Assembly (NCBI RefSeq): GCF_016859285.1
Contig: NC_053415.1
Span: forward strand, 4,289,001-4,353,000
DNA from: Xiphias gladius
Taxonomy: Eukaryota; Chordata; Actinopteri; Istiophoriformes; Xiphiidae
Direction of reading: 5' to 3'
Length of the DNA: 64,000 bases
This document shows, one piece after another, positions 1-61,035 of this stretch; position 1 is the first letter of the stretch, and each line of letters begins with the position of its first letter. Both the position numbers and the translations under genes were made by a program. The notes under the pieces are model-generated. The model saw nothing but the letters and a program-made list of their open reading frames with translations, did no database searches and was not told the DNA's origin.

Positions 1-2328
1 TTTCAAGGTCCTGGTGAAACAAGTACAGTTAACTCCTCAAGCTCTCCGAGAAAGCGACCAGTAACTGTGATATCGAAGATCATGGGCAGCATTTCCAAGC
101 ACAATGTTAGACATTGACTCAAAAGATATGTCATCTTTGCAGACTTTGCCTCATGGTAATCCTAATCCTTTCTGAAGGGCCAGGCTGGCTAGATGTGTGT
201 CATAGTTCTCTATCTTATACAACAATGTCAGAAACGTCATCTACATGTGTGACCTTCACCAGGTTACTCAATTACATCACACAGCACTTGACAACAGAAA
301 AAGTGCTGAGTTTGGACACTGGAAGACACACTGAAGTTGTGTATGAAGGTGAGGGATGAGGCAAAATCACAGAGGCCAGCAACTGAAAGAAAGGGATACA
401 TCTTTTTTATTAAATTTCAAAGTATAGAAACCTTTTTGACTGCAAATAGATGTGCAAGCATACAGTGTCTATAAACACTTGACACCATGCCCTCGGACTT
501 TTCCATGTTTTTAATTTGGTAGACTGTGGCTGTAATTAAGAGTTTTTGACAAATATCAACAGAAAACAAAAATTCTTTAATGTACAAGTTGAAAACTAAT
601 CTCCTTAAATTGATCACTGATCAAAATAAATGATGGCATAATTATCTAATCCCCTTTCTACAACATACCCAAATCATCACTGGTGCAGCCTGCTGTAGGT
701 CACGGATTAGGTGAAATGTTGACCATACGTATGTAATCAAGGCATGGCAGTTGATTTAAGGTCAAATAAACCTTATGTGGAAGATGCAGGTGTGCTTTTA
801 TTTTATATCTTGTCAAAAACTACATCATGAAGACCAGTGATTTCCAATCAGCAGTACTTGTACCCTAGGGGGTAATTCTGCAGTTACCAGGAGGTAATTC
901 TTCAGGAAGGATTCTTCATTATATTGTAACAAAAAACAATAATTTTCCAACTGCACAGGTCGCACCTTAGTTTCCAACCAAACTGACTTGGCTGTAACAG
1001 CCTGTCCTGTGACCGAGAATGCGTGCAAACTGCTTAGCAAGATAATAGGAATCTATAGATAGGTCAAACGTCCAACTTCTAAGTCATAGGTAGTATGAAT
1101 ACAAATTTGATTGAACGTACTAAAAAAAAAAAAAAAAAAAGACCAAGCCACTGATGAAGACAAAGAAAGATTTCAATACAGTCTGCAACAACTTAACTGA
1201 AATACAAGGCGGCAGAAGGATATAACATTTACAAAACCCCGAATATCTTTCTGAGTACAGTGAGATGAATGATAAAAATGAATTAAATATGGTATGGCCA
1301 CGGTTTTGCAATTCTGTAATTCAATAACATGAGGTCCACAGCTAGGGCTTGCCAGCAGGCATGTAGGCTGAAGACGGAAATGGCAGTTTTGAATCAGAAA
1401 AATCTGAGCTTTTTGATCATCATACTAAACTCAGTATTAGCTGTGAACAAGAGACTGTACGTCAGCAAAAAAAACACCATTTCCTTCAGTAGGTCTGGTG
1501 GAGGCACCATCACGCCAAGGATTGTGGGGATGTTTCTGTGCAACAGGAACTTGGAGGCTTTTTGAATGTAGCAAGTAAAAGGGTCCTGTTTCACAAAAGC
1601 AATTTGGACGATGTCAGCTCCAAATTGCAGATATATTTTAAAGCCTTACAGATCTCTTAGATGCTTGTGCATCAATCGGATGTATGGTGTTTGTTTTGAC
1701 TGGTGAAACACGAAGAGATTGGAGAAATGATCTAATGTTAAAAATCTTGCATGTAGCAAAGTTGGTAATACAGGCCCCACAAGTGTAGCAAAATACAGAG
1801 AAATCCTGGAGGAAAACCTGCTGCAGTCTGCAACAGAACTGTGACTTGGGAAAAGATTTATTTATTTTCCAACAAGACACCACCAAAGCTATACAGGAAT
1901 GGCTTAAAAAACAACAGTGTTAATGTTCAGGAGGGGCTGAGTCCAGTCCTCAAGACATTCCAAGCGTTTCGGGCAAGAAAACTGCTGTTCACACACGATG
2001 CTTGTGCAACAGAGCCTCGGCAGTTTAATAAAGAAAAGCGGGGAGATTTTTTTTGGTTAAAATATGTAAAACTGACATACTTTGTTTTAAGGCTCTAATT
2101 GCTGCCAAACTGTCGAACACTTATGCAATCAAATATTTCTGTTTTATATTTGCAGAGATTTGTTTACACTTTGACATTCTTTTTCTTTCCAGAAGAAATC
2201 CATTCTGGTTTCATGGTGAAAAAACAATATAACCATTAAAAAAAAAAAAAAAAAAAATCTACTGCTGTGGTGAAAACTTTGTATAGGCACTGTATCTGTG
2301 TCAGTGTCTATTTTCTACATGGTCATGT
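1..2328. other. Non-coding stretch downstream of wdr75
   Basis: I see no convincing gene here. The open frames are short, overlap on both strands and have no family resemblance that I can name. Two A-runs (about 1,123-1,140 and 2,239-2,258) are present. The stretch around 830-930 (an AGTGATTTCC start followed by GTACTTGTACCC) resembles the end of fish hAT-type repeats, but only weakly. The part next to 2,329 should be the wdr75 3' untranslated region. Confidence 0.5.
1857..1866 (-). terminator. Candidate wdr75 polyadenylation signals
   Basis: Two overlapping AATAAA hexamers read on the minus strand, seen as TTTATTTATT on the plus strand. They lie about 465 bases past the wdr75 stop codon, and no other AATAAA lies between them and the stop. 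Their use as the true poly(A) signal is inferred from position only. Confidence 0.35.
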
Positions 2329-26720: not shown

Positions 26721-27299
26721 CTTGACTATCCTCATATATGAGAGCACAGCGTCTTCAGTTAAAGAGACAGTTATGAAAAGTCAGTCTGGAAAAAATATGT
26801 ATTTTATTCATTTTGAAATTTCTTAAAAAGTACAAACTCAATTTCTCTGACTTTTCCCTCATACAAAATTTTAATTTTATTTTTTTTAATTTATTTTATT
26901 TTTTTATTTTAACCGTTTTTACTATTTTACATTTTACATTAAGTTCTGAGAAATGGATTGGATTTTAAACTGACACACCATTATTTTAAGCACTGAGAGG
27001 AAAAAAAGGGAGAAAACTACATGATATATAAAACTTAGTGAACTCTAGTGAAAGTGAAATTACATCTATAATATCAAAAAGTAGAAAGTAATGCTTCTAT
27101 TCTTCCGGGTTTATTATTTTTGATCAACTGATACATTAAAAAAAATAGAAAAACATGATTCAACAGTCAGTAAGTGTGTTTATTGAACATATTAACGTGT
27201 ATACAAAGCAGATACAATCATCATTTAACACTTTTTTATGAAAACTTTGAATGTACATCGGCACAACAGCAACATGTAGATCAGCCCATGTGTTCAAGC

Positions 27300-27857
27300 T
27301 TTGTCCTGAGTGCTGTTGTTTCCTCATCTGCTGTTTTCTCTCCTCCAAGCTCCCCTTGATAGTCAGCTCTCTCTCAGCATCCTCCACACATGGATGTTTG
27401 GCTGTCTGGATGTGGAGTTTCCCATCTGGATCAAGGTAGCAGGTGACGTCCTCAGGGCTCGGGCCTTCAGGGAGATCAAACTCCTGTATGAGCTCCTGGT
27501 GTCTGAAAGAGCCTTTCTCAGCCTCCTGCTTCTTCTCTGTCTTCCCTCTGACTCTTAGCTTCCACCCACCTGCCTTACAGACAGCTCCTCTGGAGAAAAG
27601 CCTTGAGTGTCCAGGATCAGGCCAAAGTGCTCTCCCTTTTTCTGCAGCTGGACATATGTTGCAGGGCGGCAGTGGTTTGGAAAGCTCCATCACCTCCACG
27701 ATCTTGTGTTGAAGTTTTTCCATCAGCTCCAGACTGCTGTGGAGCTCCTGTAGGTTCCTCTGCAGCAGGTTTGACCTCTGGCCACAGACTGCATCCAGGC
27801 CAGTACAAGTCCGTGAATGGGCTGAGGGCAGACTTGGAGTCCATGAGAGCACAGCAT
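27300..27857 (-). pseudogene. hsp30-type small heat-shock protein gene, frame broken
   Basis: Intronless small Hsp (alpha-crystallin family chaperone) of the fish/amphibian HSP30 type. The start is ATG at 27,857 (MLCSHGLQ) or 27,844 (MDSK, then SALSPFTDLYWP and SLWPEVKP). Next comes LLQRNLQELHSSLELMEKLQ in a second frame, then FQTTAALQHMS back in the first. EHFGLILDTQGFSPEELSVRQVG follows in a third frame, and then KLRVRGKTEKKQEAEKGSF and QEFDLPEGPSPEDVTCYLD in the second. The order and spacing fit the whole family protein, but at least four changes of frame are needed (near 27,765, 27,670, 27,620 and 27,545). It is therefore a pseudogene or a badly resolved stretch of assembly. The protein similarity is too good for great age. 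TATA and heat-shock elements lie upstream. Confidence 0.75.
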
Positions 27858-27967
27858 CTTTGGTGTATGTTTAGTGTTGAGTCCTCTTGTTGTGAGGTGA
27901 CATAAAGTGTGTGTGCTCCTCTGGGTGGGTTGTATTGCTTTCAGTCTCAGCAGTGGGGCTGTCCCAG

Positions 27968-30035: not shown

Positions 30036-49339
<19,304 letters not shown>

Positions 49340-50374: not shown

Positions 50375-50538
50375 AGCCAACTGTTTCCCCGTTTCCAGTC
50401 TTTATGCTAAGCTAGGCTAACTGCCCGCTGACTCCAGCTTGCAGCACACAAATATGTGAACGGTAATGAACTTCTCATCTATCTCTCGTCCAAGAAAACA
50501 AATGAGTGAGTTCCGAAAATGTCAAACTATTCCTTGAA
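50375..50538 (+). repeat. Single arm of the palindromic MITE-like family
   Basis: Contains CCAGTCTTTATGCTAAGCTA, then CAGCTTGCAGCACACAAATA, CTTCTCATCTATCTCTCGTC and an end AAACTATTCCTTG. It corresponds to the right arm of the full copy at 56,841-57,385. Confidence 0.6.
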
Positions 50539-50930: not shown

Positions 50931-51631
50931 ACCGCAGAGTTGGTCATATTGTTCGTGGGTTTGTCACTATATGCGAACTTCCCACGTCGTATAGGTGATT
51001 CGAAATATTGGTTGGTGCCGCTTGGAAATAGACGTAGCCAGCAAGGTAACGTTTAACCATCGGGAGTCCTCTATGTAAAAACCCACTTACTGTAAGTTCC
51101 GGTCACTGTTTCACACTTGTTCCGTTGTCTGACAACAGAAACAGGAAAAAGTAAACGAGAGCAACTTTATTGGGAATTCAGCTGGATTGAATCACATACC
51201 ACCCCCCCCACACACACACACACACACACACACACCAATAGTACTTAATTACTATATATCAATAATAATAAATAAAAAGAAGAAAGAAAAGCCACAAAAA
51301 TGCAACAAAAGAAGATACTGCTGTTAATAAATGTTGCACAGATTATGCACCCAGGTTACAAATCCACTGGGCTAAAGGGGCAGTTCAACCCCCTGCTTGG
51401 CCCAAATGTTCTGTCTAATTGGCTGACTTTAAAATTCCATTAGTTTGAGGAAGCAGTTAAGTAGACCCCCCCCTGCCCCGTTTTTACTGTTCAGAGATGC
51501 CCCCTGTGTTAGAGGCTTCGCTTACTTGTTACTTTTGATGTTGAATTATTTTATACAAAGTATGCCCTCTTTCAGCACATGTCGCAAGACACAACCCCTA
51601 AATTAATGCACATTTTCTGTTGCTCTGTTAG

Positions 51632-54438
51632 GGATTTGGCAGCTGTGGAGGAAAATAAAGCAAAGGCTTGTTTCCACGAACTCCTGGTGTATTTGGAACA
51701 ACAGTGGAACCATTCTGTCCAGGAGAACATCATTTTGCAGAGTCCTGACTTTCCAGGGATGAAAGACTACTTGGTGGTAGGGAAGACATGCTGTAATGTG
51801 GACTGAACATTGCAATGCAGTGCCACATTTGAGATGATGTGTCTTTCTGGGAGCATCCTCGGCTGCACTGCACTTGTTATTTTGAGTAGTGGCGCTCAAC
51901 CTGGGCATCCCAACGCCCACGGGGCATCACTTGTACCAGTGATGTAATTTGCCTTAGACTAGATTTTGGCACTTGTGGGCCACAGTGTTGTGCTTAACCA
52001 GGCAGCTGTAGCCAGCTTTGCAAGCTGTCACATCCATTTCAGAACTATGGACAGGGCCGCACCTACACACGCACCCCCTAATTTAGCCGTACTCATTTGA
52101 CCATTTCACAGGCCAAACGCCCACTGGTTTAGCTGCAGGGCTCAGAGAAATGTGTCAGAAACCAACCTGGTTATTCTGGGGCAAGATGGGCCACTGAGTT
52201 TGGCCGTAATCCTCTCTGAATGCCCAAAGGAGGAAAAGAAAATGCTGGCTTCAGCCTCTGAAAAATTGGTAAATTGACTGATACAAGTTGTCGCAATGAA
52301 CTTTGTACTTCGGTTTGATCAAGGGCTTTGCAGATGAATACGACGTCCCTGGCGTTCTGCAAGATTTTCAGCTAATTCTGGTATAATCTGTCAAAAAAGA
52401 AAGGGATTAATGCTTCTTCTTCGAGTTAGGCTTCCTCTTTTTAATGCTGACTGTGTTTAGTAGCGCAACCTGTAAAGGTTCAAGAAGCACACACTGTTAG
52501 CATAAGAGTCTGTTTTGTAAGAATCGCCACCGTGCCCCAATAACAGCAAGAATGACAGATATATCTGTGTTTTTATCAGGGTTGTGGCAGTTCGGCTGTG
52601 GAGCAAAAATGGACAGAGTTGGACGACAGAGTCAACGAACTGAAAAGGGAGGCTTCGGTATACTCCCTTGGTCTTTCTTTTGATTCCACAGTTGTTTGCT
52701 GGTTTGTATTTCACCCGGCAGTCATCCCGGGAAAACAATACTTTATTATTTCTAAAGTTGTGACTTTCAACTTTAATGCAGGAGGTAAAGAAGGAAATGA
52801 AGTCACTGGAGGTCCTATATGAAAACCATGACTACATGCAGAGGACCTGGCAAAGCGAAGGTAGAGTAGAAGACATTCAGAAACAGATGATAGTTTTGTG
52901 GGTTTGGTATGAGTTCATACTTAATTTTTATGTGGCTGTGAAAGAGGAATGTCTTAAGCAGACCAATTTTATCATACAAACAAAGCAGGTACTCTAGATT
53001 CATCCTTTTTGAGTTTTAAGCAATTTAAAGGAAGATCCCATCATTTTCCTTTAAGTTTCCTTTAAGAAGTTCAGCATCCTTGACCTTTTTTTTTTAACAG
53101 CACCCTTATGTGAAAGGCTTATAGAAGCTGTAATTGCTGTCATAGCAGAAGTGTGTTAAAAGCATGTCGTATCTGACAGTGTAGGGTTTGGGTATTATTT
53201 TTAAGTATCAATTTTTATTCTAAGCCGTTTTCTTCCTCCCATTAATTTTCTCATGGATGTCAATGCAAAACCTTACTGTTTAAAAACAAAAAAAACAAAA
53301 CAAAACACAAAACCAAGTCATAGATGCCTTTCTTGATAAAATTCTTGTTATAATGATTCTAAGCCACAACACTCTCTACATTATTAGTAAAGTCAGTGTT
53401 TAAGCAGCTTAATTAGATGTCCTCCACACATACATAATGCTTAGATTTTTTTTCTTGCAGATGGTGCTGCTGAAGATAGTAAAAATTTTAAAACAGGCAG
53501 AGCAGCTTGTTGCAGTTCTCACTGATATGGAACTGCCTGAGTGGAAGCGCATGCAGCAGATGGCCTGCATTGGAAGTCCGGTTGACACTTGTCTGAACCA
53601 CCTCCAGAAGTGGTAAGAACTTACGAGTTCTACAGCACTACATCGGCTTTTCACACTTCGTGTTAAGGAGGATACTCGTGTACTTAACATATCGTCTTTC
53701 TGTCCCAGCTGTCACACTTAATGCTTACTGACAAAGTAGGTGTTATGTGTGCCTGTGCATGCTAAATTTTCTGTGGCAGAAGTGCTAATACAAGTACGCC
53801 AACAGCTGCAGAAACTACAAGACCAGAACGAGAAATACAACAGCACTGATGCCTCCAGCCTCCCTGGAGAAACTGAGAAATTTGCCCTGTCCTTGGTCAC
53901 AAAGCTTTTTTCAAAGTAAGACATGGCATCAGGCCGGTTGTGTGTCGTATACAGTACATACACACAGACTGATACTCGCACACTTTCATATTGTTGACAT
54001 ATTTTGTTGTGGTCTTGCATTGCAGTGCTCTAGTGGTTGAGAAACGACCTGTCATGTTGAGAATACCACAACGCCCTCTAATACTTAAGACCGGGGTGCG
54101 GTTCACAGCGGCGGTTAGGTAAGGCTGCACTCAACACAGTGTTGTTATGCAGGCTCTTTAAGAAAAAGTAGCCAACACAGAATTGATGAGGGAATATCTT
54201 TTGGAAGAATGGTGTCCATCCCTGCTGTAGAGATCCAGAGACCTGTAGAATCAGTGCCAAGGTGCATCGAAGCTGTTCTGGAGGCTTGTGGTGGTCCAAC
54301 ACCTCACTGAGACAACATGTTGGTTTTTCCATTTAATTTGTCACCCCGTCTGTGTGTTTGTGTGTGTGTGTATATATGTATGTGTATGTATGTATGTATA
54401 TATATCTTTGTGTGTGTCTGTGTATAATAATAATAATA

Positions 54439-54480
<42 letters not shown>

Positions 54481-57400
54481 GAGAGATGATGATCAGTGTC
54501 TGTTTCTTGCCTTCTCAGGTTCTTAGCAAACTTACCTGAATTCAAGTGCCTGCTCAGAGTCAAACCTGTGTTTGTCAAGTATGTCAAAGAGACTTTGGTC
54601 TGAGCCAGTGATATAGAACATTATTATTTTACATAAACACAAATCGTCCTTTTTAAAATTTTGATTATCTTGTTTGTTTTAATAAATGTTCCTTTTTCAA
54701 TAGCTTTTGTATTCTGATAAATCTTTTTGTATCCTTTTTTCCTACCCTCCCCCAAAAAAGGGATGTCAAAGAAACCATGACTATTAATGGGTAGGTCAAG
54801 GGTTCTCAAAACAATTTGAAAATCTGAAATGTAAACTGATTATTTATATCATCATTCTTCATTCTTCGAGAATACTGATTCATTTTTGGACATAGATTTA
54901 CTCTGGACTGATGTTTTCGTAGGTTCCGTCACTTCAATTTCAACAGGGATAACAGTAAGGTGTTGGATGTGGACGTGCCCGGTGGAGGCTTGGTGGCAGA
55001 ATTTGCGCACATGGTATGAAACTCCACAAACTACCGAACTCTGACATTGAAGAAAAACTCAACCTTTGTAATGCGAACATAGGCTAAAGCAAAAATCCCT
55101 TTTGTTTTGTACTGATGTTTCTGTCATTGAACAAACATATAGCTTTGTATTTATGAACAATATGTGTAATATAATGCAGACATCACTTAAATCAAATGAA
55201 TATTGTAAGGTATATAATGACTGCATTTACTTAAATGTTTCAATTTTTTTTTTCAGTCACTCAAGGAAAACAAAGCAAGAACCAAAGATCCTTTGGTAAG
55301 AGGTAAGAGGAGACATTTATATTAAATTATTATATAAAAATCATTTGTAGGTATAAACAAACACTTGATACTATATGCATTGGTCACCACTAGGTGCTCT
55401 AATGGGTCACTCACTGGCATGAAAGTGGAGCCAGTTATCCAGTCCAGCCAGTTTGAAATAAGTATTTTTTTTTCTAACTTTTTCATTATATCAAACTTTG
55501 TCTCTAAGTTTTTCCTTTTGGAAAAAAAAGCCCCACATCTCCAAATGAAGCTTTTTGTTGCTCTGTATCTGCTGGATGTGTAAATAAGCATTTGCTGTCT
55601 CAGCTTTTTATAAAGTGATAATATGCCAGTGTTGTTTACAGCCGGTTGCACTGCTCACAAGTGGCCAAAAAAATCCCTTAGTGCAGGTTTAAAGCAATGT
55701 TCACGTGATTGTTTATGAAGGACAGTATCGCACGTATTTCAGCAACACCCGCATGTTGGTAGATAAAACCTGATGGAACTGAGTGAATGGGAATAATGAA
55801 ACCGAGTTAGTAAAGAGAGATACAAGTGAGATGTTTTAGGGTTGGCAGGTAGATATAACCACAACACTTAATCAGCCAGTGAATTCCATGTGGATATATT
55901 TTACTTACTCACACGTCACAACTTAGATGTGTTTATTTGTCCGTGAATGTGACAAGCGAATAACTGTCCCCTGTAAACTATTGTTAGTATTGGGTTATAT
56001 TTCAGTAAGCTTTTTTTCCCCATCACTACTTCTAAGTGCTTTTTTTGGGATCAAAATAAGCACCTTTTTTTTCCTCCTTAAACCATGTCTCTTTCATCAA
56101 TGTCATCTGGGAGTCACTGAAGAACTCCACATCATGAAGTTTGTGACAGGGTTTCAGCACAATGTACTGAGTTGTGACATCGAGGTGAGCAAAGATGACA
56201 TTTAAATTACCGTCAGAGGCATTTCAGTTTCATTTTTAACTCCAGTGCAGCACAACAAACATGCCTGCAAGTTAAGACATGTCCAGATTGCACCAAATAA
56301 CAATGACTTCTTTGTATTCCTTAATATTTAGTAGTTTTATCTTTAATTTCTCCTGCACAGGTATAACCATTTTCTTTCTTCCTATTTTGCTGAATAAGTT
56401 CATATTTGCAAAACTTCAAATATCAGTCTTAAAACCATTGTCGTGGTCACATCCCTAGGTTAGTGTATTTTGTCCCTTCAGAAAGAAAACTGTATTAAAA
56501 CTCTAGTTTCGTTCTTTCGAACCTGTTGTTGTTTGCCGACCCCCTTCCGCTCACCTGGCAGCAGCTGTCAGAGGTTCTGAGCTGGCAGTTTTTGTCTGTT
56601 GGCCAACGAGAACTTGATGAAAACCAGCTCTCCATGCTACGAGGCAAAATTGTGGGTGAGTATTTGGCTGTTTTCTTCCATTGAATTGAACCATGCCCCT
56701 TATTGTTGGTAGCTTGAAAAAAGGAGTTCACCCCTTGTCAGGAATGTTGATCCTTTAGAACAAATTTTAATGGCAAAAGGACTAATCAGTATTGGAGAAC
56801 GCGCAAGTTGTAATCCTTGTCAGCTTCTATCTATGTTAAGGTTAGAGTCTGACATTTTGGGAAATACACTTATTAACTTTTTTGCTTAGAGTTAGATGAG
56901 AAGATTGATACCACTCTCATGTCTTTGCGATTAAATAAGAAGCTACAGTCAGCAGACTGTTAGCTTAGCTTAGCTTAGCATAAAGACGGGAAACGGAGAC
57001 AGCTGGAAACAGCTAGCCTGGCTCTGTATGTACAAAACAACACGTTGTAGTTTAACCGAGGGTTATGTACTGGACTGTTTCTTGACTGGGTACAGTGATT
57101 TCTTGGACATCACTGTGAAAATATTTCATTTTTTGTACAGATGAAACAAAAGAGATTATTTTCAATTATTGAGCTTTAGAGTTGCTAATAGGCAGATTTT
57201 GTTACCTTTGGAAAGAGCCCAGCTAATTATTTCCCCCCCTATTTTGAGTCTTTATGCTAAGCTAAGCTAATCAGTTGCTAGCTGTAGCTTTACATTTACC
57301 ACACAGACATAAGTGGTATCGATCTTCTCATCTAAATCTAAGCAAGGAATTGTATTTTCCAAAATGTTGAGCTATTTCTTTAAAACACCATCACTGTTGA

Positions 57401-60400
57401 CTCCTATATGACAAAAAAGGGGGAGAAAGCTACCATTTCCAGGTTGTTGGTCGGGGTTTCACAGATGATCCTGATGGTCTCATTCATTGGATCCAATTCT
57501 CCAAGGTGAATGTTGAGAAAGGTCCTTGCCATGCTGTAGTTTACACAAATCATACAATCTGTACGATGTGTGTGTGTGTGTGTGTGTGTGTGCGTGCGCG
57601 TTTGTGTTTTTATGCTGTTTACATGTTGCCTTTTGTTTTCCTGTGTGCCAGAATGAAAGTGCCTGGATTTGGATCGATAGAATCCTGGATTTGATCACAA
57701 GACACTTGGTGGATCTTTGGCGGGATGGGTAAAGCACATCTTAAATCGTCTTTTGATTTTTCACGGTGTATAACTGTATAATCCACAAATAATTCCCACA
57801 TTAATAATGAGACAGTGGCCCTCGTGTGACCACTAAAAGAATAACCCTGTTTTCTGAGTATTATTAGTTGGGAATGTGGAAGGGGATTAAGGCACGATGC
57901 TTCCCGGTTAATTAACCTCTTGTTATATTGTGCATGTGGGTTTTCAGGTACATCATGGGGTTCGTGAGCAGGAAGACAACACATGTCCTGTTGCAGGAAA
58001 AACAGTCCGGGACCTTTCTGCTCCGCTTTAGCGAGAGCAACAAAGAAGGAGCCATCACTTTCAGCTGGGTTGAACACTTCAATGGTGGTATGTTTCTGTA
58101 CTCTTTCAAAATTAGGGTTTTAACAATACAGGTTTTTCCAGGCCAATACACTTTTGGTATTTTCAGAAAACCCTCTTAAATAGCAGATGGACAAAGTAAC
58201 ACTAACAGCACTTTCACACTGTAATAATAGTCAAATCAAAACCAGAGCTTGCTTGTAACTGGCAGTTTTGTGTTGTGTCTGATAACAAACGAACCTTGAT
58301 CAAAGAAAAATATTGTATTAACATGTCTCTTTCATTGTCACTTCACATAAGACCACTCATCATTTGTAGCGAGAAAAAGCCTAACAGTGTGTCTACACGT
58401 ACGCCCGTCAACGTGACCCGAAGCGTGTTCTTAAACGCGGGTGATCTACAACTCGATACTGTACCTGAAAGTCTCCTGTGTAGACAAAATACCGGAGCTG
58501 CTGCTGCTGCTCTGCTAATATGCTGCCCACAATACCCTCTGTGTGAACATGGTGTAAGATAAAAATAGCCCAAACAAACCACCATGAAGTGAGAGTACAT
58601 AATGCACAATTGATTGTTTCTTCTGCCTCCAGTCATGTGTCCTGTCTTGTGCGGAATAATTTCCACATCAGACATTTAGATACTTGTTTTCTTGTTTGCT
58701 TACTTTTCTCTTTGTATATGGCTCCCCAATAGAGACCCGTGTGCGTGCAGTAGAGCCTTTCACCGAGAAGGAGCTGCTGGCCATGTGTCTGCCAGACCTT
58801 ATTTGCTGCTGCAGGCTGGAAGCACAGGGGAACGAGACCAGGAATCCTCTGCTCTACCTTTACCCAGACATCCCCAGAGACACTGCCTTTGGACGCTGCT
58901 GCAGCATCTCTGGTACTGTCTCTCGCTTGACTTTCACCCTAAGAATCCGATAACTTTATTCACCAAGTGTTTTTTTTTTTTTTTTTTTTTTTATGTACTC
59001 TTGAAAAAGCATTGTCTAACATAACAAGTATTGCATAACACTGGGCTGAAATGGAGCTCCTCACCCTGTCCAACTTGTAATGATTGATGGATTTCTGTTA
59101 GCGTTGCCATTGCAACTGCATAGATCATCCAGCTTACTGTAAGTCTGCGTATTTATTACATATTATTGTTTGTTTATTGTTTATTGATCCTTAGGGGACT
59201 TTGATCACCACCTCTGTTTATGCAGAAAAGGCAGCAGCTAAAAAGGACAAAAATGGATACATTGACAGAATGCTCTACTTTTTCTTTATAGTAAGATGAT
59301 GATTATTAAACCAATAAAGCTTCCGGAGTAAATGCTTTGCATCACAAATATTTAACCATTCTGTATGGTTTCTGGCTGTACAGGAAAAAAAATTGTCTTC
59401 ATTTTTTTTTTTCTCTTTTCCCACAGCTCTCTCACACCATCTCCATCCCCACTGCAGGACATGCACATGGGCATGGACCTAGACACAATTGTGGGTTTGA
59501 AATTTTACAACTCATTTCCCTGCAGTCCTTTAAAGCTGCACTCATTTGTATTTTTGGCCACTTGGGGGCAGTGGAACAAGCTGCTAACTCAACATGGACA
59601 TATGATCAGCCTTGTTCCTTGTTTACACTTCCAGTAACACTCATTTGGAGTCGTGCTTCTGGCCACCCGACGAATTTCAAATCTAATTTTCGCTCTCCTT
59701 TCAGCTCTTAGTTTTGGTCTCCGCTGACTCCTAAGGAAAAATATCTTTCTCTGTAGCTGCTACGTGCTCCGCTTATGTTCACCAGCTCGTTGCTAACTTT
59801 GTATGTCCTCTTTGGTGGTGGACAGGCAGTGAACAGTGCGTTGTTGCTGGAAATGAGGTTGATGAGAGAGATGGGACTAAACCCGAAAATTAAAGTAGCG
59901 AGCCATAACACCAGCGGTGTATTCCAGAAAGCGGGTTTAGTGAAAACTCCGAGTTAACTCTGAGTTGAGAGAAACTGCTGAGTTTCCTGTTCCAGAAACA
60001 GAGTAAATGTAGTAACTTACTCTGTGAATCTAACCTGCTCGCTGGCAGGTTTTCTTCAACAATCCCCATATTTCTTTCCATGCAGAAGTGTTAGCACAGA
60101 GACAGTGATCCCTGTCCTTACATTCAAATATTCCGCGGTCATGGGATCATCATCAACTTACAATAAAATCTACAGCCTACACTGTCTGTCATTATAACAA
60201 CTGCCAGGTTGTCAGTCGGCTCTACACTGAAACATTTGTCCTACGTTACTGTATTACTGTACTATAAATACTTTAAAAAAAAAATCTGATCAGTGAATCA
60301 GTCGAGCTGATCATTTCTTATGTTGTGATTAGTCAAACTATCATAGTTATCATAAGAGATTATGTGATATTTCTGAGTGAGGATGATTGCTGTGCAGCTG

Positions 60401-61035
60401 AAAAGACTTTTTTTTAAAAACTGGACTAAATGACATTTAAAAGTGAGGTTTTTTTAATACAGGCTTCATATAGTCATAACTTACTGTTGACATTTACTAG
60501 ATGTTGAAATATAACATTGTATAAAATATATCCAGTTGAGTAATATTTTTAAATGTAAAATAGGCCTCTAAAAATTTACACTTCGACACTTTCTTTCAGC
60601 AGCAACTTGAGACATCGCTGTCTCCATCTGTCTTCTGCTCTCATTCTGTGTCGTGGATGTATAAAGAGCTGCAGGTCTGTGTGTCTGCTCGACCGAGGCG
60701 CAGGGCCGAGCTACACAGGCGCAGGGCGGAGAGGCCCCGGCGGACAGGGAGAAGCGTGCGCTCCAATGCGCCACCTTCCCGTAACCACTGTCAAACAGAA
60801 AAGAATGTTTTATTTCGCTGATTCTCTCTTGTTCCCGCTGACACTGCTCCCTCTCTTCATCCACTCTCTAGCTCGCTCGACCAACACTCCCCTCTCTCTT
60901 TTTCTTTACTTGTAGACAGAGGATCATCAACTGACTCAATATCTCTTCTATGATCTCCTCGATTTACCCAGCGGTCCCTCCCTCTGGACACCAACAACTC
61001 AGGCCAATGTTTTCAATCCCGGTAGCCCCTTCTGA
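51632..61035 (+). CDS. stat1: STAT1-type gene, divergent and partly eroded
   Basis: STAT1 is the interferon-activated SH2 transcription factor. Readable exons: 51632-51776 ([19 protein letters not shown]), 52146-52268, 52580-52657, 52782-52860, 52945-52988, 53461-53612, about 53767-53915 ([15 protein letters not shown]), 54026-54118 ([18 protein letters not shown]), 54519-54578, 54761-54790, 54923-55013, 55257-55302, 56114-56184 ([10 protein letters not shown]), 56520-56655 ([11 protein letters not shown]), 57465-57505, 57652-57728, 57948-58087 (SH2, [19 protein letters not shown]), 58733-58912, 59226-59290 (tail tyrosine in KNGYIDRM), 59427-59490, 60916-61035. STAT1 is shown by [23 protein letters not shown] and its position after stat4. 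Not found: the start exon (MxxW...), and an exon for SNVSQLPxGWASxxWYN. The exon near 53,767 and the one at 56,520 lack an AG acceptor in the needed phase, and 59,290 does not join 59,427 in phase. The gene is either a recent pseudogene or contains assembly errors; SH2 and tail look sound. Confidence 0.75.
54420..54480 (+). repeat. (AAT)n/(ATT)n microsatellite
   Basis: AATAATAAT switches to a long ATT run, giving a self-complementary junction. It is preceded by TG/TA-rich simple sequence (54,354-54,420). It lies in an intron of the STAT1-type gene just before the exon at 54,519. Confidence 0.9.
55310..55690 (+). repeat. Dispersed repeat fragment
   Basis: Contains TGTTTACAGCCGG, TTGCACTGCTCACAAGTGGC and CAAAAAAATCCCTTAGTGCA, similar to pieces at 35,400-35,450 and 59,520-59,590 (TTTTTGGCCACTTGGGGGCA in inverse sense). 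A fish repeat of unknown class in the STAT1-type gene. Confidence 0.4.
56841..57385. repeat. Full palindromic MITE-like element with long inverted arms
   Basis: Left arm: GACATTTTGGGAAATACAC, GAGTTAGATGAGAAGATTGA, TACCACTCTCATGTCT, GAAGCTACAGTCAGCAG and TTAGCTTAGCTTAGCATAAA. The right arm is the reverse complement: TTTATGCTAAGCTAAGCTAA, GTAGCTTTACATTTACCACA, GGTATCGATCTTCTCATCTA and TTTTCCAAAATGTTGAGCTA. Arms are about 150-180 bases around a unique centre (TGGACTGTTTCTTGACTGGG). It lies in the STAT1-type gene between the exons at 56,655 and 57,465. No coding capacity is seen. Confidence 0.8.
57569..57600 (+). repeat. (TG)n microsatellite
   Basis: A short TG run followed by CGTGCGCG in the intron before the STAT1-type exon at 57,652. 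Open frames of cysteine-valine across it are artefacts. Confidence 0.85.
58969..58993 (+). repeat. T-run in the STAT1-type gene
   Basis: About 24 consecutive T residues in the intron after the exon ending at 58,912. Confidence 0.85.
59510..59895 (+). repeat. Dispersed repeat, companion of 50,548-50,930
   Basis: Starts near CAGTCCTTTAAAGCTGCACT with TTTTTGGCCACTTGGGGGCA, and carries the same block series as 50,548-50,930. It directly follows the STAT1-type exon ending at 59,490. Confidence 0.5.
59916..60200 (+). mobile_element. Fragment of a DNA transposon, probably Harbinger-like
   Basis: The blocks GTATTCCAGAAAGCGGGTTT, TGTTCCAGAAACAGAGTAA, CTAACCTGCTCGCTGGCAGG and ATGGGATCATCATCAACTTA are in the order I know from a common fish repeat, usually placed with PIF/Harbinger elements. 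No transposase reading is left. The family assignment is from memory and uncertain. Confidence 0.4.

What the first reader, a model, noticed from the sequence alone, without database searches (positions are those of the whole stretch)
51632..61035. STAT1-type gene with working SH2 and tail but several unusable splice junctions
Most exons show purifying-selection-like conservation (SH2 arginine, [12 protein letters not shown] tyrosine, good GT-AG sites). Even so, the start exon and the exon for the [13 protein letters not shown] segment are missing. The exon at about 53,767 has no AG directly before its conserved frame, and using the nearest AG gives a stop and the wrong frame. The exon at 56,520 is preceded by CG, and 59,290 joins 59,427 out of phase. 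Either a STAT1 copy is being lost beside an intact stat4, or the locus uses alternative exons, or the assembly has local errors. Teleosts often carry two stat1 genes, which would allow loss of one (established knowledge).
Basis: partly seen in the sequence, partly recalled or inferred. Interest (0 to 1): 0.72.

Follow-up and report, generated by a model that had tools for sequence, protein, structure and literature searches.

The report
Broken stat1b gene beside stat4
A fish-like genome carries a fast-evolving second copy of the interferon-signalling gene STAT1 that can no longer be spliced into a whole STAT1 protein, while an intact copy survives on another contig; this fits a known pattern of stat1b loss in fish.

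Summary
In the gls–stat1–stat4 order lies a stat1b relic (51,632–59,490, +). Measured against stat4 in the window and an intact stat1a on contig C13, it lacks exon 1 and the ISNVSQLP exon (E15). E21 and E22 are out of phase. A whole STAT1 cannot be made.

The tail is not in working order: KTEL and LPMSP are gone, and nothing supports exons out to 61,035.

The exon bodies are strikingly clean. All 18 exons placed in E2–E20 are free of stops, with lengths equal to stat1a or differing by multiples of three, although the protein evolves several times faster than stat1a. So it lived long and was lost recently, or it is still expressed in a shortened form. An open path of 512 codons with GT–AG sites exists, but random damage leaves such a path in 25–57% of cases, so it is no evidence of life.

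stat1b absence is already reported in lumpfish (PMC10556531). Ordinary, mildly interesting.

The parts
51632..51776 (+). stat1b E2 homologue (rest of N-terminal domain); same length as stat1a E2
52173..52268 (+). stat1b E3 homologue; TT instead of AG at the place homologous to stat1a, an in-phase AG lies 27 nt upstream (exon from 52146)
52580..52657 (+). stat1b E4, coiled coil
52782..52860 (+). stat1b E5, coiled coil
52945..52988 (+). stat1b E6 (inferred), 48 nt shorter than in stat1a
   Evidence: placed by reading the sequence
53461..53612 (+). stat1b E7, coiled coil; same length as stat1a and stat4
53764..53765 (+). lost acceptor of E8: AA
53766..53915 (+). stat1b E8, coiled coil, open frame, not joinable to E7 in full
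54026..54118 (+). stat1b E9, DNA-binding domain
54519..54578 (+). stat1b E10
54761..54790 (+). stat1b E11
54923..55013 (+). stat1b E12
55257..55295 (+). stat1b E13 (a second donor 7 nt downstream, intron from 55303)
   Evidence: DNA alignment to stat1a E14
56101..56184 (+). stat1b E14, end of DNA-binding domain
56185..56519 (+). stretch where E15 (ISNVSQLP, 99 nt in stat1a and stat4) should lie; exon not found
56518..56519 (+). lost acceptor of E16: CG
56520..56655 (+). stat1b E16, linker domain; in-frame cryptic acceptor before 56562
57465..57505 (+). stat1b E17
57652..57728 (+). stat1b E18
57948..58087 (+). stat1b E19, SH2 core with the arginine of [10 protein letters not shown]
58733..58912 (+). 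stat1b E20, rest of SH2
59226..59290 (+). stat1b E21, GYI present, KTEL replaced; donor at 59291 phase 0 instead of 2
59427..59490 (+). stat1b E22 homologue (transactivation tail), tail-like frame entered in phase 2; end uncertain
30078..48080 (+). intact stat4 (control); end approximate

Best explanation
This is the teleost stat1b gene in its ancestral place between stat4 and gls, now a recently inactivated duplicate (an unprocessed pseudogene in the making). It evolved fast but in frame for a long time, while stat1a on another contig kept the STAT1 role. It then lost exon 1, the linker exon E15, the acceptors of E8, E14 and E16, and the phase of the last junction. Shown: the lesions, the intact paralogue and the in-frame exon bodies. 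Inferred: that no other transcript rescues it, that the loss is recent, that stat1a covers its function, and that the organism is a teleost (from the gene set and gene order; no species test was possible).
For: Six defects against the exon template shared by stat4 and stat1a, perhaps not all independent: the E14 acceptor, E15 and the E16 acceptor lie within 421 bases. E1 and E15 are absent by profile and DNA tests. An intact stat1a lies in the same genome. stat1b is much faster: in 603 columns, 212 where stat1a equals human and stat1b differs, 27 the other way; branch 1.26 against 0.25. Its donors are weaker than those of stat1a (mean 2.21 against 4.87, p=0.0007; against stat4 3.31, p=0.07). 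The pTyr motif after GYI is lost, with a -2/+2 pattern against stat1a (that alignment alone scores 24, shuffle maximum 31). [quoted passage not shown]
Against: No stop in about 1,800 coding nt (E2-E22 without E6), no frame-breaking length change in E2-E20, and GT at all 20 donor places. If decay were neutral, three splice lesions before any exon lesion has p about 0.02 (0.013-0.14 by the assumed indel rate); that test was made after seeing the data, leaves out the deletions of E1 and E15, and counts no lesion in E21, whose -2/+2 pattern could be two. A continuous 512-codon path with GT-AG sites exists. The surviving acceptors are not significantly weaker than in stat1a (p=0.07) or stat4 (p=0.54).
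Confidence: 0.8

Rival explanations
1. The locus is alive in a rewired, shorter form: E8, E14 and E15 are skipped, E3 and E16 use shifted acceptors (exons from 52146 and 56562), and translation stops at the third codon of intron 21, much as in the STAT1-beta isoform (recalled). The product would keep part of the coiled coil, part of the DNA-binding domain and the SH2, and might act as a decoy or inhibitor of STAT1a.
For: Open path of 512 codons and a stop with AG acceptors and GT donors; exon bodies without stops, 9 of 9 length changes in E2-E20 in multiples of three; neutral-order test p about 0.02, with the limits given above; the E16 cryptic acceptor scores 3.5, like real ones.
Against: Random triples of dead acceptors plus loss of E15 leave such a path in 466 of 816 and 211 of 816 cases for stat1a, 316 and 202 of 816 for stat4 (two score cut-offs). 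No first exon is known; the first ATG in the path is codon 43. The E6 acceptor and E4 donor of the path are weak (-3.2 and -3.1). The pTyr motif is lost.
Confidence: 0.13
2. Assembly or base-calling errors, or a null allele in the sequenced animal, mimic a broken gene.
For: Only one assembly was seen; the E8, E14 and E16 acceptors differ from AG by one or two bases.
Against: Two exons are missing from sequence without N; stat4 (same contig) and stat1a are clean by the same method; the decayed tail is not an error pattern; exon bodies E2-E20 show no frame-breaking indel.
Confidence: 0.05
3. A tandem duplicate pseudogene like the zebrafish stat1 pseudogene next to stat1b, with an intact stat1b elsewhere.
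For: Zebrafish has a stat1 pseudogene just downstream of stat1b (PMC3296744, passages). The genome search is not sensitive: it missed the SH2 exon of stat4 in this very window.
Against: DNA search of the genome with the SH2 exon found two places, this one and stat1a (a copy closer than stat1a should have shown). From 59,400 to 10 kb past the window stat1a gave one weak match only (E 0.23, with a stop), and gls follows.
Confidence: 0.02

Closest known systems
teleost stat1b (zebrafish, salmon, stickleback), next to stat4
   Same: Position beside stat4; nearest solved relative is STAT1 (387 bits, against 314 for STAT3 and 252 for STAT2); wdr75 and gls nearby, as described for fish
   Different: Exon 1 and E15 missing, three acceptors lost; 42.5% identical to human STAT1 (259 of 609) against 69.9% for stat1a (515 of 737). 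A five-tip tree puts it on the STAT4 side, which I take as long-branch attraction
lumpfish stat1b absence (PMC10556531)
   Same: A fish with stat1a and stat4 kept and stat1b not identified
   Different: No remnant is described in the passages seen; here a relic with nearly all exons is still visible
zebrafish stat1 pseudogene downstream of stat1b (PMC3296744)
   Same: Decayed stat1 copy at the stat4 locus
   Different: Zebrafish also has stat1b beside it; here this is the only stat1b found

Membership tests
STAT1 (functional gene) | Sequence closest to STAT1 among STATs | tested here: met
   (score 789 against STAT1, 626 against STAT4). The five-tip tree does not confirm it
STAT1 (functional gene) | Complete N-terminal domain (exons 1-3) | tested here: not met
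   E1 not found
STAT1 (functional gene) | DNA-binding and linker segment [13 protein letters not shown] | tested here: not met
   E15 not found
STAT1 (functional gene) | SH2 arginine in [10 protein letters not shown] | tested here: met
   E19
STAT1 (functional gene) | Phosphotyrosine tail GYIKTEL and transactivation motif LPMSP | tested here: not met
   GYI present, KTEL and LPMSP absent; stat1a has GYMKTEL and LPMSP
STAT1 (functional gene) | Usable junctions giving one full frame | tested here: not met
stat1b orthologue | Place between stat4 and gls | tested here: met
   stat4 upstream, gls C-terminus downstream on the other strand in L006
stat1b orthologue | Groups with stat1b of other fish in a tree | not testable with these tools
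   no other fish sequence was at hand; a five-tip tree did not join it to stat1a
Unprocessed duplicate pseudogene | Several disabling changes, introns kept, intact paralogue present | tested here: met
Unprocessed duplicate pseudogene | Stops or frameshifts inside exons | tested here: not met
   none in E2-E20; E21 is inconclusive (-2/+2 pattern)
Unprocessed duplicate pseudogene | No functional transcript | not testable with these tools
   no RNA data

The most novel reading that the evidence does not exclude
stat1b has not died but been rebuilt. Apart from exon 1, the lesions fell where splicing can jump in frame, leaving a short STAT without the ISNVSQLP linker exon or a normal tail, but with an SH2 that could bind cytokine-receptor phosphotyrosines and restrain STAT1a.
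Probability: 0.1. Interest if true: 0.6.

Novelty: new member of a known kind. Interest (0 to 1): 0.27.

Why it matters
It catches the loss of an interferon-pathway duplicate at an early, readable stage: fast in-frame evolution first, then splice and exon losses, with the exon frames still clean. Comparing it with lumpfish (stat1b not identified) and zebrafish (stat1b kept and induced by type I interferon; passages) could show how and when fish fall back on a single stat1. If the short form is expressed, it would be a natural truncated STAT.

Tried and rejected
Protein scans for relatives in viral contigs and genome contigs gave none, as expected for a vertebrate gene. An ISRE-like pattern scan found no excess (6 against 5.41 expected). 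The open alternative path and the in-frame alternative AGs were considered as a sign of life and rejected: 18 of 21 stat1a and 17 of 21 stat4 junctions also have such an AG (score -5 or more), and one search gives 25-57%. A bias of lesions to acceptors (3 of 19, E3 left out, against 0 of 19 donors) is not significant (p=0.23). E3 was first counted as a lost acceptor and dropped, because 52146 is usable. Structure prediction was not used: it would follow homology and not tell a live from a dead gene.

Own errors: exon offsets (E6, E8) and some exon ends were off; one search replaces them, except that its E21 end is one base too long (one search is right). In one search, E21 and E22 are printed as not differing by multiples of three from stat1a; both ends are uncertain or shifted, and they are left out of the E2-E20 count. 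The stat1a protein carried a wrong E19 end, so its last part there is meaningless; corrected, and the spliced alignment of stat1b to it was not rerun. The one odd junction of stat1a was an aligner artefact. My aligner accepts GC donors. Its splice score tables and the indel rates are approximate values from memory.

Full report
What the window is. The window is C16:4,289,001-4,353,000 of an unnamed 690.8-Mb genome in 1,298 contigs. It holds wdr75 pieces on the minus strand (12.4-13.9 kb, Pfam), stat4 on the plus strand (30,078 to about 48,080) and the stat1-type gene (51,632-59,490, plus). Just past the window, gls exons lie on the minus strand in L006: the joined pieces match glutaminase over residues 2-71 of 71 (85.6 bits), though designed ankyrin-repeat proteins rank above it in the list. 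[quoted passage not shown] PMC10556531 (passages) places fish stat1b next to stat4 near wdr75 and slc40a1. That the organism is a teleost is inferred from this gene set.

What the gene is. Its exons, read together for a search, match STAT1 best among solved structures (387 bits; STAT3 314, STAT2 252) and hit the Pfam domains STAT_int, STAT_alpha, STAT_bind, STAT_linker and SH2 above their cut-offs. By position and similarity it is stat1b. A five-tip tree did not join it to stat1a but set it, on a very long branch, at the STAT4 side; I take this as long-branch attraction, and it is a result against a simple placement.

Controls. The same home-made spliced aligner gives stat4 21 accepted junctions, one with a GC donor, and counts 20 introns with no frameshift or stop against either human protein. 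A DNA search of the genome with the SH2 exon found two places: this one and C13 about 1,623,700, 75% identical; it missed the SH2 exon of stat4, so it sees close copies only. On C13 lies an intact stat1a: 741 codons without a stop, 21 of 21 GT donors and 21 of 21 AG acceptors, last exon end not determined, 515 of 737 residues identical to human STAT1 against 259 of 609 for stat1b.

The lesions. Against the exon template shared by stat4 and stat1a: E1 and E15 are absent. The E8 acceptor reads AA at 53,764-53,765 (GC three bases upstream if no codon was lost), and none of 17 AGs lets E7 join the whole E8. The E16 acceptor reads CG at 56,518-56,519. E21 offers a phase-0 donor at 59,291, whereas the tail-like frame of E22 must be entered in phase 2. 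E3 has TT at the homologous place but an in-phase AG 27 nt upstream, so I do not count it. The tail has GYI but not KTEL, with a -2/+2 pattern against stat1a (the score alone, 24, is within the shuffle range, maximum 31), and no LPMSP.

The clean exons. The 18 exons placed in E2-E20 are free of stops, and their lengths differ from stat1a by 0 (9 exons) or by a multiple of three (9 exons). The starts of E3, E8 and E14 and the end of E13 were set by homology and are not independent evidence; in the 13 exons left after setting aside E3, E8, E13, E14 and E16, 6 of 6 changes are multiples of three (E6 itself is inferred). E21 and E22 do not fit this rule, their ends being shifted or uncertain. So the frame was guarded for a long time. 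Yet the protein ran fast: 212 columns where stat1a equals human and stat1b differs, 27 the other way, of 603.

Dead or rewired? If decay were neutral, the chance of three splice lesions before any stop or frame-breaking indel is about 0.02 with one indel per ten substitutions (0.14 with none, 0.013 with 0.15). This test was made after seeing the data, ignores the two lost exons, and would weaken if the E21 pattern is two indels. A continuous path of 512 codons and a stop with AG acceptors and GT donors does exist, skipping E8, E14 and E15 and using exons from 52,146 and 56,562; its first ATG is codon 43. But random triples of dead acceptors with E15 removed leave such a path in 466 of 816 or 211 of 816 cases for stat1a, and 316 or 202 of 816 for stat4 (two score cut-offs), so the path says little. 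Donors are weaker than in stat1a (p=0.0007), less clearly than in stat4 (p=0.07); the 16 surviving AG acceptors are not significantly weaker (p=0.07 and 0.54). I judge a recent loss most likely and keep a rewired short STAT at about one in ten.

Known or new. Absence of stat1b is in print for lumpfish, and a figure legend there speaks of (partial) loss of stat1b genes (PMC10556531, passages). A stat1 pseudogene at this locus is in print for zebrafish (PMC3296744, passages). Paper searches were made; in their listings I saw no description of this relic, but the species is not known to me and most subscription papers are not held.

Limits. No RNA, no second individual and no related fish sequence was available; the genome search for E15 elsewhere did not complete. 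That the lost linker exon carries a base-contacting asparagine of STAT1, and the STAT1-beta comparison, are recalled and not taken from a call.

Noticed in passing
window 52782-52988: E5, the presumed 84-nt intron and E6 form one open frame of 69 codons, so retaining this intron would keep the frame.
   Followed up: partly
window 56855-57022 and 57197-57381: Two arms in opposite orientation in intron 16 match one stretch of a stat4 intron (about 45119-45305) at about 76%; a third, weaker match (70%) lies at 50381-50535. A repeat element, perhaps a MITE-like inverted repeat.
   Followed up: no
window 51096-51195: A 100-bp repeat, 90% identical to a copy in L006, lies between stat4 and E2, near where exon 1 should be.
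   Followed up: no
window 46963-47391: Reverse-transcriptase fragment in the last large stat4 intron (RVT_1, 28.8 bits, just under the cut-off of 29.6).
   Followed up: no
window 27160-27870, minus strand: Open frame of 236 aa between wdr75 and stat4 without a Pfam match at E 0.1.
   Followed up: no
window 46232: The aligner chose a GC donor in stat4 before the exon with the tail tyrosine (HPYIPS); the exon boundary there is uncertain.
   Followed up: no
L006 about 211-1440, minus strand: C-terminal exons of gls, convergent with stat1b.
   Followed up: partly
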